The notes under the pieces: generated by a model
Seen by the model: only the letters and a program-made list of their open reading frames with translations
What the model was told of the DNA's origin: nothing
The model's database searches: none
Assembly: GCF_021026375.1 (NCBI RefSeq)
Contig: NZ_JAJNDB010000006.1
Coordinates: 186,001-250,000, forward strand
Length of the DNA stretch: 64,000 bases
Reading direction: 5' to 3'
DNA from: Actinomycetospora endophytica
GTDB taxonomy: Bacteria; Actinomycetota; Actinomycetes; Mycobacteriales; Pseudonocardiaceae
Translations under genes and position numbers: made by a program
Part shown: piece after piece, positions 31,119-34,128 of the stretch
How positions within the stretch are numbered: the first letter of the stretch is position 1
Layout: every line of letters begins with the position of its first letter

Positions 31119-31742
31119 TCACCGGCGGGCGAGGCACACCCCGCTCACCCGGAGCATCGCGGCCATGACCCCGACGCCGAGGGTGATCGAGCCGTGCGCC
31201 CCGCCGGTCACGGCCCAGGCGTTCCCGGCGACGACGCCGACCGCGGCGAGCACCGAGACGCCGGCGGCGACGGCGTGGCCCTCGCGACGCATCCGGCCGG
31301 CGAGGAGCAGGCAGGTCACGGTCAACGCGAGGAACGAGAGCGTTCCGGTGATCATGTGGCCGACGGCGTGCCAGCTCAGGCCGGGCGTCCCGACCGGGTC
31401 CATGGAGAACACCCCCGCGGCGGCCAGCAGCACCCCGGAGAGGCCCCAGGCGCCCGCCAGGGCCCGGGAGCGGGGGAAGGACCGGCGCAGACCGACGGCG
31501 CCGAGGACGACCAGCAGGCCGCCGATCAGGAAGTTCGCGATCTGGATCCAGCCGAGCGAACCGGTCGCGAGCAGGCTCAGGGGCTCGTACGAGAAGTCGA
31601 AGTCCGAGCGGGTGGCGGCCTGGGTCAGCGCCACCACCGACCACAGCGGCGCGGACACCGCTCCGGCGAGGAGCAGGCGGTCGGTGGTGACGGCCCGGTC
31701 GGCGTCGGTGCCGGCGGCGGGGGTGGTGAGCGTGGCGGTCAT
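31119..31742 (-). CDS. DUF998 membrane protein
   Basis: 207 aa from ATG 31742. Typical DUF998 organisation with six hydrophobic segments: LAGAVSAPLWSVVALTQA, FDFSYEPLSLLATGSLGWIQIANFLIGG, LSGVLLAAAGVFSMDP, WHAVGHMITGTLSFLAL and later helices. The family is of unknown function, often with redox or sigma-factor-linked neighbours. It diverges from the YCII/ECF pair; the shared promoter region carries a perfect palindrome at 31787-31824. Confidence 0.8.
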   Translation of the reverse strand: MTATLTTPAAGTDADRAVTTDRLLLAGAVSAPLWSVVALTQAATRSDFDFSYEPLSLLATGSLGWIQIANFLIGGLLVVLGAVGLRRSFPRSRALAGAWGLSGVLLAAAGVFSMDPVGTPGLSWHAVGHMITGTLSFLALTVTCLLLAGRMRREGHAVAAGVSVLAAVGVVAGNAWAVTGGAHGSITLGVGVMAAMLRVSGVCLARR

Positions 31743-31786
31743 GGCGTCCTCCGTGGGTCGAGCGGTCGTCGGGGCGTCGTGCGGGC

Positions 31787-31824
31787 CGATGTGACAGGGA
31801 ACGACTAGATTCCCTGTCACATCG
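31787..31824. promoter_or_regulatory. Perfect palindrome in a divergent promoter region, likely operator
   Basis: Arms CGATGTGACAGGGAA (31787-31801) and TTCCCTGTCACATCG (31810-31824) match perfectly across an 8-nt centre. The site lies between the divergent DUF998 (start 31742) and YCII (start 31882) genes, so one bound dimer could control both. Confidence 0.75.
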
Positions 31825-31881
31825 CCCGAGTCGACGTCGTGGTGACCAGGCACGACCGATCACGACCCGAAGGAGACGACG

Positions 31882-32211
31882 ATGCGATTCCTCATGACGA
31901 CCGGGGAGAACAGCCGGCAGCCCGACGAGGCCCTGTTCGCGGAGATGGGCGCGTTCATCGAGGAGATGGCGGCGTCCGGGAGGCTCGTCGTCACCGGCGG
32001 GCTCGGCCCGGACCCCCGGCGGATGGAGTCGCTGGGCGACGAGATCACCGTGACCGACGGCCCGTTCACCGAGACCAAGGAGGCGATCCTCGGTTTCGCG
32101 ATCATGGACTGCGACTCGTGGGACGAGGCGCTGGAGATCGCGCGGCGCTTCCGGGCGATCGTGGGTGACGGGCAGTCGACGATCCACCAGGTGTTCGGGC
32201 CCGATGAGTGA
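31882..32211 (+). CDS. YCII/DGPF-domain protein
   Basis: 109 aa from ATG 31882 with a GAAGGAGA ribosome site. YCII-related fold with the DGPF signature in ITVTDGPFTETKEAILGFAIM. Genes of this type are known companions of ECF42-group sigma factors, and here the sigma gene overlaps its end by 8 bp. The family is suspected to be enzymatic or sensory, but the role is not established. Confidence 0.88.
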   Translation: MRFLMTTGENSRQPDEALFAEMGAFIEEMAASGRLVVTGGLGPDPRRMESLGDEITVTDGPFTETKEAILGFAIMDCDSWDEALEIARRFRAIVGDGQSTIHQVFGPDE

Positions 32212-34105
32212 CGTCCGGGCCGCCGTCGCCGACCACTGGCGCCGGGAGTCCGCGACCGTCGTCGCGACCCTGGTCCGGATGGTCGGCGACGCCGGTCTGG
32301 CCGAGGAACTCGCCCAGGACGCCCTCGTCGCGGCGCTCGAGCAGTGGCCGGGGTCGGGGATTCCCGACGAGCCCGGCGCGTGGCTGACCACGGTCGCGCG
32401 CCGCCGCGCCGTCGACCACCTGCGCCGCACCGGCCGGCTGGAGTCCTACGACGACGAGCCACCACCGGAGCCCGCGCCGGCCGACGGGCCCGCGGACGAC
32501 GACGACGTCGTGCGCCTCATGCTCCTCACCTGCCATCCCGCGCTGGCGCGGGACGAGCGCACGGCGATGACGCTGCGCCTCGTCGGCGGCCTCGGGACCG
32601 CCGAGATCGCGCGGGCCTTCCTGCTGCACGAGCAGCAGGTCGTCGCGCGGATCGCGCGCGCCAAGCGGACGCTCGCCGAGGTCGGGGTGTCCCCGGGCGG
32701 TGACCTCGGCGGTCGGCTCGGGGCCGTCCTCGAGGTCGTCTACCTCGTCTTCAACGAGGGGTACACGGCCACCGCGGGCGCGGATCTGCTGCGCCCGCGG
32801 CTCGTCGGCGAGGCGCTGCGGCTGGGTCGCCTGCTCACCGCGCACGCACCGGACGACCCGGAGGCCCACGGTCTGCTCGCGCTGATGGAGCTGCAGGCCT
32901 CCCGCTCGGCCGCGCGCACCGACCCGGCCGGCGCGCCGGTGCCCCTCGACGAGCAGGACCGCACGCTCTGGGACCGCGACGCGATCCGCCGCGGTGTGGC
33001 GTCACTGCTGCGCACGCGTAGGACCCCGGGGCGGCCCGGCCCCTACGTGCTGCAGGCCGCGATCGCCGTGCAGCACGCGCAGGCCGCCCGGCCCGAGGAC
33101 ACCGACCGGGCGCAGGTCGCGGCGCTCTACGACCTGCTCGTGACCGTCCTCCCGACCCCGGTGGTGCGGCTGAACCGCGCGGTCGCGATCGGTGCGGCGC
33201 AGGGGCCCACCGCGGGCCTGGCGGCCGTCGACGAGCTGGTCACCGAGGGCACGCTGCGCGACTACCACCTGCTCCCGGCGGTGCGGGCCGATCTGCTCGG
33301 CCGGCTCGGGCGCGACGCCGAGGCGCGGGTGGAGTGGCGTCGGGCGGCCGCCCTGACCGCCAACGCCGCCGAACGGGCGTTGCTCCTGCGCCGCGCCGAC
33401 GCCCTCGCCGCGGTCGCGGCCACCGGGCCCACTCTCGGTCCGGCGGTGGAACGGTTCCTCGCCCGCGACGACCTCTCGGGCGCCTCACGCCGCTCCTACG
33501 GCCAGACCCTGCGCCGGCTGGTGCGCGCCCTCGGCGACGCGCGCCCGCTCGCGACCCTCGACGCCGACGTCGTGGCCGGGGTCCTGACGACGACGTGGAG
33601 CGACGCCTCGGCCGCCACCTGGAACCGGCACCGGGCGACCGTCCGGTCCTTCGCGGCCTGGCTGGACCGGCCGGGGATCGCCACCGGGGTGGCCACGCGG
33701 GACGCACCGGCGCGCCCGGCCGTCGTCGCACCCGTCGTCCCCGACGGGCCGCTGCGCGAGCGGGCGCTCTGGGCCGTGCTCGCGGAGTCCGGGGCGAGGG
33801 TGACCGAGGCGCTCGGCCTCGACGTGGACGACCTCGACCTCACCGGACACCGGGCCGGGGCCCTCCGGTGGTCGCCGGCCACGAGCGGTCTGCTCCGGGC
33901 CCTGGTCGGGTCGCGCGCCGCGGGCCCGCTGTTCCTCTCCGAGCGGCGTCCGGGGCCGGCTCGCCGACCCGGTGCGCGGGATCTCTGCCCGCACACCGGG
34001 CGGCGCCGGTTGTCCTACGAACGGGCCGAGTACCTGTTCAAGCAGGCCTCGTCCGGCTCCACGCTGAGAGCGCTTCGCGCATGTGAGCGGATTTGGTCGT
34101 CCTGA
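32204..34105 (+). CDS. ECF42-type sigma factor fused to a truncated tyrosine recombinase domain
   Basis: 633 aa from ATG 32204. Residues 1-~400 are a full ECF sigma factor of the DGPF-linked type: sigma2 (GDAGLAEELAQDALVAALEQWP), sigma4 (ERTAMTLRLVGGLGTAEIARAFLL) and the helical C-terminal extension (VYLVFNEGYTATAG, PTPVVRLNRAVAIG). From ~408 the chain continues as an integrase: SAM-like core-binding domain (AVERFLARDDLSGASRRSYG, RHRATVRSFAAWLDRPG) and catalytic start with Arg532 in ESGARVTEALGLDVDDLDL. It stops at SGSTLRALRACERIWSS, where integrases continue with the HxxR, H and Tyr residues, so recombination activity must be lost. The last residues lie in a 46-bp palindrome. Confidence 0.85.
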   Translation: MSDVRAAVADHWRRESATVVATLVRMVGDAGLAEELAQDALVAALEQWPGSGIPDEPGAWLTTVARRRAVDHLRRTGRLESYDDEPPPEPAPADGPADDDDVVRLMLLTCHPALARDERTAMTLRLVGGLGTAEIARAFLLHEQQVVARIARAKRTLAEVGVSPGGDLGGRLGAVLEVVYLVFNEGYTATAGADLLRPRLVGEALRLGRLLTAHAPDDPEAHGLLALMELQASRSAARTDPAGAPVPLDEQDRTLWDRDAIRRGVASLLRTRRTPGRPGPYVLQAAIAVQHAQAARPEDTDRAQVAALYDLLVTVLPTPVVRLNRAVAIGAAQGPTAGLAAVDELVTEGTLRDYHLLPAVRADLLGRLGRDAEARVEWRRAAALTANAAERALLLRRADALAAVAATGPTLGPAVERFLARDDLSGASRRSYGQTLRRLVRALGDARPLATLDADVVAGVLTTTWSDASAATWNRHRATVRSFAAWLDRPGIATGVATRDAPARPAVVAPVVPDGPLRERALWAVLAESGARVTEALGLDVDDLDLTGHRAGALRWSPATSGLLRALVGSRAAGPLFLSERRPGPARRPGARDLCPHTGRRRLSYERAEYLFKQASSGSTLRALRACERIWSS

Positions 34106-34125
34106 CGACCAAATCCACTCACATG
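34080..34125. repeat. 46-bp palindromic element, copy 2; also terminator-like
   Basis: 22-bp arms with one mismatch and a CT centre: CATGTGAGCGGATTTGG... paired with ...CCAAATCCACTCACATG. It contains the stop codon of the sigma-integrase fusion (34103) and ends 4 bp before the stop of the convergent sugar transporter (34129), so it could end both transcripts. Homologous to the element at 13792-13837. Confidence 0.85.
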
Positions 34126-34128
34126 CCG

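What the first reader, a model, noticed from the sequence alone, without database searches (positions are those of the whole stretch)
32204..34125. ECF sigma factor fused in frame to a tyrosine recombinase that has lost its active site
Seen: one uninterrupted 633-aa frame holds a complete DGPF-linked ECF42-type sigma factor (residues 1-~400) and then the core-binding domain and first catalytic arginine (Arg532) of a phage-type integrase. The frame ends exactly where the HxxR/H/Tyr block should come. Known: ECF42 sigma factors have a C-terminal helical extension and a DGPF partner gene, both present; fusion to an integrase is not a standard architecture I know of. Inference: the integrase part may now be a DNA-binding tether that guides the sigma factor, or the fusion is a relic of an integration event.
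Basis: partly seen in the sequence, partly recalled or inferred. Interest (0 to 1): 0.75.

Follow-up and report, generated by a model that had tools for sequence, protein, structure and literature searches.

The report
Sigma factor carrying a dead recombinase
Many soil actinobacteria make a gene-switch protein (a sigma factor) joined to a DNA-cutting enzyme that can no longer cut, and the evidence suggests the dead enzyme now finds the promoter by binding its old DNA site.

Summary
The fusion is real, neither relic nor artefact. Window frame 32204-34105 (633 aa) is an ECF42-type sigma factor followed by the core-binding domain and front half of a tyrosine recombinase. The same unbroken frame occurs in 10 of 18 genomes of the genus and in 75 of 80 named actinomycete loci. 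Catalytic Tyr and second His are absent in 75 of 75 fusions; the module is under purifying selection (17 of 17 pairs).

New: the DGPF-fusion promoter holds an inverted repeat, ATGTGACAGGGAA-8 nt-TTCCCTGTCACAT. Non-fused ECF42 loci have TGTCGA-N17/18-CGAC instead (19 of 20). The nearest stand-alone recombinases, without a sigma factor, carry the same repeat with a 7-nt spacer (8 of 9), an outer clade a variant with 6 nt. In most fusions one arm sits where the -35 hexamer should be, and sigma region 4's recognition helix has lost its invariant Arg and Thr. Three early-branching fusions have both elements.

Best reading: the dead recombinase, with its old site, has taken over -35 recognition. DNA binding is inferred, not shown.

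The parts
31119..31742 (-). divergent DUF998 membrane-protein gene, likely second target of the promoter
   Evidence: Pfam DUF998 2.3e-25; divergent DUF998 within 600 nt of DGPF in 53 of 75 named loci
31776..31779 (-). -10-like CGAC of the divergent promoter
   Evidence: pattern match 217776-217801 minus strand of the contig
31789..31801 (-). left arm ATGTGACAGGGAA of the inverted repeat
   Evidence: TTCCCTGTCA occurs only twice in the 6.98-Mb genome, both here
31802..31809 (.). 8-nt spacer between the arms
31810..31822 (+). right arm TTCCCTGTCACAT, at the -35 position of the DGPF-fusion promoter
31832..31835 (+). -10-like CGAC, 22 nt from the start of the arm
31882..32211 (+). DGPF/YCII-domain gene, partner gene of ECF42
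   Evidence: Pfam YCII 4.2e-14
32204..34105 (+). sigma factor-recombinase fusion gene, 633 aa
32243..32437 (+). sigma region 2 (residues 14-78)
32516..32674 (+). sigma region 4 (residues 105-157); recognition helix about 142-156
32714..33403 (+). DUF6596/TPR extension (about residues 171-400)
33434..33670 (+). recombinase core-binding domain (about residues 411-489)
33749..34078 (+). front half of the recombinase catalytic domain (about 516-625), ending at TLRALR
34079..34126 (.). dispersed 47-nt palindrome that supplies the last codons and stop; not part of the conserved module

Best explanation
An ECF42 sigma factor was fused, apparently once, to a chromosomal tyrosine recombinase, whose catalytic half was then lost. 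The remaining core-binding domain and front catalytic lobe keep the recombinase's sequence-specific grip on its own half-site (TTCCCTGTCACAT). In early-branching fusions the half-site lies upstream of a normal ECF42 promoter and would act as a tether. In most fusions the half-site stands on the -35 position, so that sigma region 2 reads the CGAC -10 element, the dead recombinase reads the arm, and sigma region 4 no longer reads a -35 hexamer. The paired arms give two back-to-back promoters, one for the DGPF-fusion operon (self-activation) and one for the divergent DUF998 gene. Shown: fusion, conservation, loss of catalytic residues, site, site-module association, region-4 change, intermediates. 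Inferred: DNA binding, promoter use, regulatory consequence.
For: Conserved single-frame fusion: 10 of 18 in the genus, 75 of 80 named loci, one clade in a quick tree of 67 rows (SH-aLRT 96). Catalytic loss: Tyr and second His 0 of 75, Arg I 3 of 75. Purifying selection: dN/dS 0.15-0.48 in 17 of 17 pairs. Site follows the fusion: the exact repeat is in 29 of 45 fusion genomes and 0 of 252 others of the family, 1.56-2.2 kb from the module. Site follows the recombinase without a sigma factor: 8 of 9 nearest stand-alone integrases, 7-nt spacer, and an outer clade with 6 nt, e.g. L217 with 1 and L218 with 2 mismatches of 22. Promoter swap: non-fused TGTCGA-N17/18-CGAC in 19 of 20 and no arm in 20; fused, exact canonical form in 1 of 82; right arm in 76 of 82 (0-3 mismatches of 13), followed at +21/+22 by CGAC in 71 and CGTC in 2 of the 76, the other 3 being the intermediates. 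Region 4: Arg152 in 34 of 34 non-fused but 7 of 72 fused, Thr145 in 33 of 34 but 16 of 72. Intermediates: L115, L121 and L158 carry both a canonical or one-off -35 and an upstream arm, and all three keep Arg152.
Against: No binding or transcription data. 16 of 45 family fusion genomes lack the exact repeat; degenerate and single-arm forms are seen in the named set but were not checked in these 16. Six of 82 upstream regions (L109, L112, L126, L133, L144, L145) lack a right arm by the scan; L145 has a variant one and the other five only the left arm. A looser pattern (TTCCCTGTC-N11-14-CGAC) is also met off the locus: 13 of 18 genus genomes match, 3 of the 8 without the fusion among them, though none of those off-locus sites has the ACAT end. 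TTCCCTGTCA is not rare in all fusion genomes: 4 in G302 and 9 in G304, against 2 each in G300, G301 and G303. Three fusions with the arm at -35, the window among them, keep Arg152. The intermediates are two lineages only. Counts are not phylogenetically independent. L215, a near stand-alone, has half-sites but no full repeat, and in L150 and L207 the repeat lies 1.0-1.6 kb upstream of the integrase. The predicted fold does not show DNA binding.
Confidence: 0.72

Rival explanations
1. Sigma region 4 itself changed specificity and now reads TTCCC/GTTCC as its -35; the recombinase module does something else, such as dimerisation or binding a partner.
For: The arm starts at the -35 position. Region 4 is still recognisable, and three fusions with the arm at -35 keep Arg152.
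Against: The same arm stands near stand-alone recombinases without a sigma factor. The arm is nearly invariant (0-3 mismatches of 13 in 76 regions) while the recognition helix varies among fusions, the opposite of what region-4 reading predicts.
Confidence: 0.13
2. The inverted repeat is an operator for a third, unseen regulator that happens to travel with these loci.
For: It is a dyad, the usual shape of an operator; DGPF proteins have no known biochemical role (recalled).
Against: The feature shared by the loci with the repeat is the recombinase module: tblastn finds no relative of the window's DGPF, sigma factor or DUF998 in 20 stand-alone loci. Exact repeat in 0 of 252 family genomes without the fusion.
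Confidence: 0.09
3. The module is an inhibitory or signal-sensing extension (as SnoaL in ECF41) and DNA binding is vestigial, or the fusion represses its own promoter by sitting on the arm.
For: Extensions of other ECF groups are regulatory (PMC8999054, passages). A recombinase-fold protein without activity can be a repressor (MrpR, PMC10516654, passages).
Against: CGAC or CGTC stays at fixed spacing from the arm (73 of 76), and the arm replaces rather than accompanies the -35 in 59 of the 68 fusions with an upstream region to read, which suits activation better. Repression under some condition is not excluded.
Confidence: 0.15
4. Relic: the recombinase part is a decaying remnant, or an assembly artefact.
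For: Active site lost; a dispersed palindrome supplies the window copy's end; dN/dS of the module exceeds that of the sigma part in 14 of 17 pairs; L100 and L111 are broken copies.
Against: Many genera, one clade, dN/dS below 0.5 in 17 of 17 pairs, uniform end point.
Confidence: 0.01

Closest known systems
ECF42 sigma factors (DGPF partner, TPR extension)
   Same: Region 2/4, DUF6596/TPR extension, adjacent DGPF/YCII gene, CGAC -10. A review describes an extension of about 200 residues rich in TPR that is essential for activity (PMC8999054, passages).
   Different: Adds a recombinase module of about 230 residues; TGTCGA -35 replaced by a recombinase-type arm in most; invariant recognition-helix residues mostly lost.
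Xer/phage-type tyrosine recombinases (XerA, XerD, XerH, lambda Int, Cre)
   Same: Fold of core-binding domain and front catalytic lobe; paired arms around a short spacer (geometry of their sites recalled).
   Different: No Tyr, no second His, Arg I and Lys mostly gone; C-terminal half of the catalytic domain missing.
MrpR (YopR) of phage SPbeta, and SroF of phi3T
   Same: Recombinase fold in a DNA-binding regulator; MrpR shows no recombination activity (PMC10516654, passages; SroF known here only from structure titles).
   Different: Free-standing phage repressors; not fused to a sigma factor.
ECF41/ECF56 sigma factors with SnoaL extension
   Same: Sigma factor with a fused C-terminal domain (PMC8999054, passages).
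   Different: Extension is regulatory, not a DNA-reading recombinase.
Domesticated Crypton and ALOG recombinase-derived regulators of eukaryotes
   Same: Recombinase DNA-binding parts reused in gene regulation (PMC3212892, PMC3537659: search listing and start of abstract only).
   Different: Eukaryotic; not part of a sigma factor.

Membership tests
ECF42 sigma factor | regions 2 and 4 without region 3 | tested here: met
ECF42 sigma factor | TPR-type C-terminal extension | tested here: met
   DUF6596; TPR folds match model residues 167-407
ECF42 sigma factor | DGPF/YCII gene in the neighbourhood | tested here: met
   75 of 80 named loci, the 5 without being 3 stand-alones, L111 and L134
ECF42 sigma factor | TGTCGA -35 at its own operon (motif recalled from the literature, found here in 19 of 20 non-fused loci) | tested here: not met
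   the window has the arm instead; exact canonical form in 1 of 82 fused upstream regions. So: derived from ECF42, not a typical member
Active tyrosine recombinase | Arg I, Lys, HxxR, His/Trp and Tyr | tested here: not met
   Tyr 0 of 75, second His 0 of 75, Arg I 3 of 75
Tyrosine recombinase fold | core-binding domain plus catalytic domain | tested here: met
Tyrosine-recombinase core site | inverted arms around a short spacer, near the recombinase gene | tested here: met
Tyrosine-recombinase core site | bound and cleaved by the recombinase | not testable with these tools
   needs binding and cleavage assays
MrpR-type regulator | recombinase fold that binds a repeated phage element as repressor | not tested
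   fold match only; the arm is not repeated across the own genome (2 places)

The most novel reading that the evidence does not exclude
A new class of sigma factor in which promoter recognition is split between sigma region 2 (-10) and a domesticated, catalytically dead tyrosine recombinase that reads its own former recombination half-site in place of the -35 element. Living forms record the handover: site with 6-nt spacer beside an intact recombinase, 7-nt at near stand-alones, site upstream of a normal -35, then site at -35 with a degenerate region 4.
Probability: 0.62. Interest if true: 0.92.

Novelty: new variant of a known kind. Interest (0 to 1): 0.85.

Why it matters
Sigma factors are thought to carry their own promoter-reading parts. 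Here a mobile-element enzyme seems to have supplied one, together with its DNA site, and stages of the handover survive in living species. That makes a general question testable: how a regulator acquires a new DNA specificity without losing function. In the window's genome the arm is near-unique (TTCCCTGTCA at two places in 7 Mb; up to nine in one other fusion genome), so such fusions might serve as specific switches. Of six plasmid records with the near full-length protein, four name it and all four name only a sigma factor.

Tried and rejected
Relic, frameshift and assembly error: rejected. A reading that residues of the helix before the HxxR box (LSYERAEYLF) set arm specificity: dropped, because 6 of 20 family fusions have LSYPRA, and five of those six genomes carry the exact repeat; LSYERAEY was also a search pattern, so its conservation in L080-L159 is biased. 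Phage origin of the near stand-alone recombinase: no match in 50,697 phage records. Phylum-wide sampling was too thin (5 of 396 genomes). Picking divergent genes by longest ORF was unreliable (21 of 77) and was replaced by tblastn (53 of 75). Foldseek with the full-length model gave nothing at E below 0.001; the module alone gave 5. Casas-Pastor 2021 and Liu 2018 are not held, so whether a published ECF42 subgroup already contains this fusion could not be checked.

Counts to read with care. The 82 upstream regions hold four genomes twice (L017/L142, L019/L123, L020/L141, L021/L159); without them the right arm is in 72 of 78. One search counted 77 of 82, one of which (L126) proved a chance match. 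Only 30 of the 45 family 'fusion genomes' were checked for the sigma factor in the same frame; 15 rest on frame length. Region-4 counts use the window plus 71 of 75 named fusions: L089, L126, L129 and L138 were dropped for doubtful starts. The 0 of 37 for distant stand-alones in a Fisher line was typed before the scan was read; the scan itself shows repeats in L217 and L218 and one search shows related ones in more, so that value is not used, and notebook entry 7 ('0 full IR') is superseded. Shuffles were plain letter shuffles, 20 each. dN/dS is NG86 and the 17 pairs share some members. The tree is a quick one without bootstrap; its near stand-alone group is weakly supported (39). L221, L222, L225, L228 and L232 had no parsed frame and were scanned only for near-exact repeats.
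Full report
WHAT IS THERE. The window is a stretch of a 6.98-Mb genome. Its genus is Actinomycetospora by inference: the unnamed same-genus loci L013-L015 give the same hits as the named loci L080-L082. Frame 32204-34105 encodes 633 residues: sigma region 2, region 4, a DUF6596/TPR extension, a phage-integrase core-binding domain and the first part of a catalytic domain. The DGPF/YCII gene 31882-32211 overlaps its start. A divergent DUF998 gene lies at 31119-31742. AlphaFold2 with 63 sequences (window plus named loci) gives mean pLDDT 89.4 for the whole and 91.7 for the module alone. The module matches XerA, lambda Int, XerH and Cre, and, lower in the list, the recombinase-fold repressors MrpR/YopR and SroF.

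IS IT AN ACCIDENT? No. In the genus the same frame is open in 10 of 18 genomes, at 61-77% identity to the window protein. A profile of the module found matches in 70 of 297 genomes of the family, 45 of them in frames of 618-902 aa; the 20 of these outside the genus that I read all have the sigma factor in the same frame and stop at TLxxL. A scan of named genomes returned 168 relatives; of the best 80, 77 have the sigma factor and 75 have sigma factor and module in one unbroken frame, in Streptomyces, Amycolatopsis, Nonomuraea, Actinoplanes, Microtetraspora and others. Six plasmid records carry it nearly full length; the two opened name it only as a sigma factor. dN/dS of the module is 0.15-0.48 in 17 of 17 pairs, higher than in the sigma part in 14 of 17.

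THE ACTIVE SITE. Aligned to the intact Actinomadura recombinase in L150, the fusions end at the HxxR box. Among 75 fusions (window plus 74 of 75; L143 could not be parsed): Arg I in 3, Lys column empty in 69, His of HxxR in 8, second His 0, Tyr 0; 0-22 residues follow the HxxR position. The window's Arg532 is one of the three. L111, a broken copy not among the 75, runs on in an unrelated tail.

THE SITE. Upstream of the DGPF gene the window has ATGTGACAGGGAA-cgactaga-TTCCCTGTCACAT (31789-31822). In the whole genome TTCCCTGTCA occurs only in these two arms; in five other fusion genomes it occurs 2, 2, 2, 4 and 9 times. Of 82 fusion upstream regions (four genomes twice), 76 have the right arm with 0-3 mismatches of 13; at +21 or +22 follows CGAC in 71 and CGTC in 2, and in the other 3, the intermediates below, neither. 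A left arm with 8-nt (44) or 9-nt (12) spacer is common; 16 have no left arm within the scan's spacing. The exact repeat (6-9 nt spacer) is in 29 of 45 fusion genomes of the family and in 0 of 252 others (Fisher 5e-29, not corrected for kinship), at 1.56-2.2 kb from the module; the reversed-pattern control found none. One genome (G174) has a second copy elsewhere. The two plasmid loci read also have it. With the looser pattern TTCCCTGTC-N11-14-CGAC the site is found at the locus in 10 of 10 genus fusion genomes, but also elsewhere in 4 of these and in 3 of 8 without the fusion.

THE SITE BELONGS TO THE RECOMBINASE. In the genus of Actinomadura sp. J1-007 (L150), 65 genomes searched by profile gave two fusions and nine near stand-alone integrases, plus more distant ones. 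None of the nine has a relative of the sigma factor, DGPF or DUF998 in the locus held. Eight of the nine have the same repeat with a 7-nt spacer; the ninth, L215, has two half-sites. In six of the eight it lies 0-310 nt before the integrase frame; in L150 and L207 it lies 1.0-1.6 kb before it. At these repeats CGAC is not at +21/+22, so they are not sigma promoters of this kind. An outer clade has a variant repeat with a 6-nt spacer: mismatches to the 22-nt core are 1 (L217), 2 (L218), 3 (L226, L231, L233), 5 (L219, L229) and 6 (L220), against shuffle means of 8.2-8.8 and shuffle minima of 6-8; it lies 53-96 nt before the frame in L217-L220 and L229. L223, L224, L230, L234, L235 and L200-L202 are at chance. 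The L217 and L218 frames keep all the catalytic motifs; L219 and L220 do not. Fifteen more distant integrases have no repeat and one half-site in all. In the tree all fusions are one clade (96), near stand-alones lie beside it, and far ones outside (97).

THE SWAP. Non-fused ECF42 loci of the genus have TGTCGA-N17/18-CGAC before the first DGPF gene in 19 of 20 (L024 is cut by its contig end) and no arm in 20 of 20. With 17 nt between the elements, the fusions' -35 hexamer would fall on the beginning of the arm. Correspondingly the region-4 recognition helix has changed: Arg152 is in 20 of 20 non-fused of the genus and 14 of 14 diverse non-fused plasmid relatives (Actinomycetota, Alphaproteobacteria, Cyanobacteria), but in 7 of 72 fusions, where Glu (11) and Asp (9) are frequent; Thr145 is in 33 of 34 against 16 of 72. 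This is not general drift: mean identity within fusions exceeds that within the diverse non-fused set in region 2 (0.79 against 0.44) and TPR (0.78 against 0.49), but not in the recognition helix (0.54 against 0.56). Of the 14 diverse relatives, 6 showed a TGTCGA-N-CG[AT]C match upstream, 8 none, and none an arm.

INTERMEDIATES. Of 72 fusions, 59 have the arm at -35 (3 with Arg152), 6 fit neither scan pattern, 4 had no DGPF upstream region in the set, and 3 have a canonical or one-off -35 with CGAC while the arm lies further upstream: L158 (TGTCGA at -86, arm at -127, counted from the end of the ATG) and L115/L121 (GGTCGA at -71, arms at -139 and -113). All three keep Arg152. L115 and L158 branch first in the fusion clade of the tree (L121 was not in it). 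The arms of L115/L121 begin TTACC, as in the outer stand-alone clade.

MECHANISM. Inferred: the module, tied to polymerase through the sigma factor, grips the arm over about -35 to -23 while region 2 opens the CGAC -10. Loss of the rear catalytic lobe, which in full recombinases closes the clamp round DNA (recalled), would make room for polymerase. The two arms serve the DGPF-fusion operon and the DUF998 gene, so the system would be a small self-activating circuit; its signal is unknown.

LITERATURE. Searches for this fusion listed no paper whose title or abstract describes it, in the library held. Passages of PMC8999054 and PMC8103513 discuss ECF42, and the words integrase and recombinase do not occur in either text; passages of PMC9205884 and PMC11256431 did not help. 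The classification paper and the main ECF42 paper are not held, so novelty is provisional. MrpR (PMC10516654, passages) is the nearest precedent for a dead recombinase as a regulator; its authors suggest that such reuse may be more widespread.

Noticed in passing
window 34079-34126: A 47-nt near-perfect palindrome between the fusion and the convergent sugar transporter is dispersed through the genome: 68 matches at about 40 places, many on both strands. It could be a shared terminator or a REP-like repeat.
   Followed up: no
L013, L014, L015, L016: In four close relatives the fusion frame runs on into the antisense of the convergent transporter gene's end, so the last residues are not conserved there.
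   Followed up: partly
L109, L112, L126, L133, L144: Only the left arm, facing DUF998, is present; the DGPF gene starts soon after it, so the DGPF-fusion operon may be under another promoter there.
   Followed up: no
L150 4344-4450; L207 221-340; L215: In one stand-alone subclade an extra half-site lies about 75-90 nt from the paired arms (L215: two half-sites at that distance), like an accessory site of a recombinase.
   Followed up: no
L200 minus strand, about 91 nt before the integrase frame: A distant stand-alone integrase of another class has a perfect inverted repeat of its own, 11-nt arms of different sequence and a 7-nt spacer; perhaps each lineage keeps its own site there.
   Followed up: no
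G174:C1:10705891: A second exact inverted repeat far from the fusion in one family genome; neighbours not read.
   Followed up: no
L100, L111: Two loci where the sigma part is split or truncated while the module frame remains.
   Followed up: no
L252: A Rhodococcus plasmid has DUF998-YciI-non-fused sigma factor in one row, so the DUF998 link may predate the fusion.
   Followed up: no
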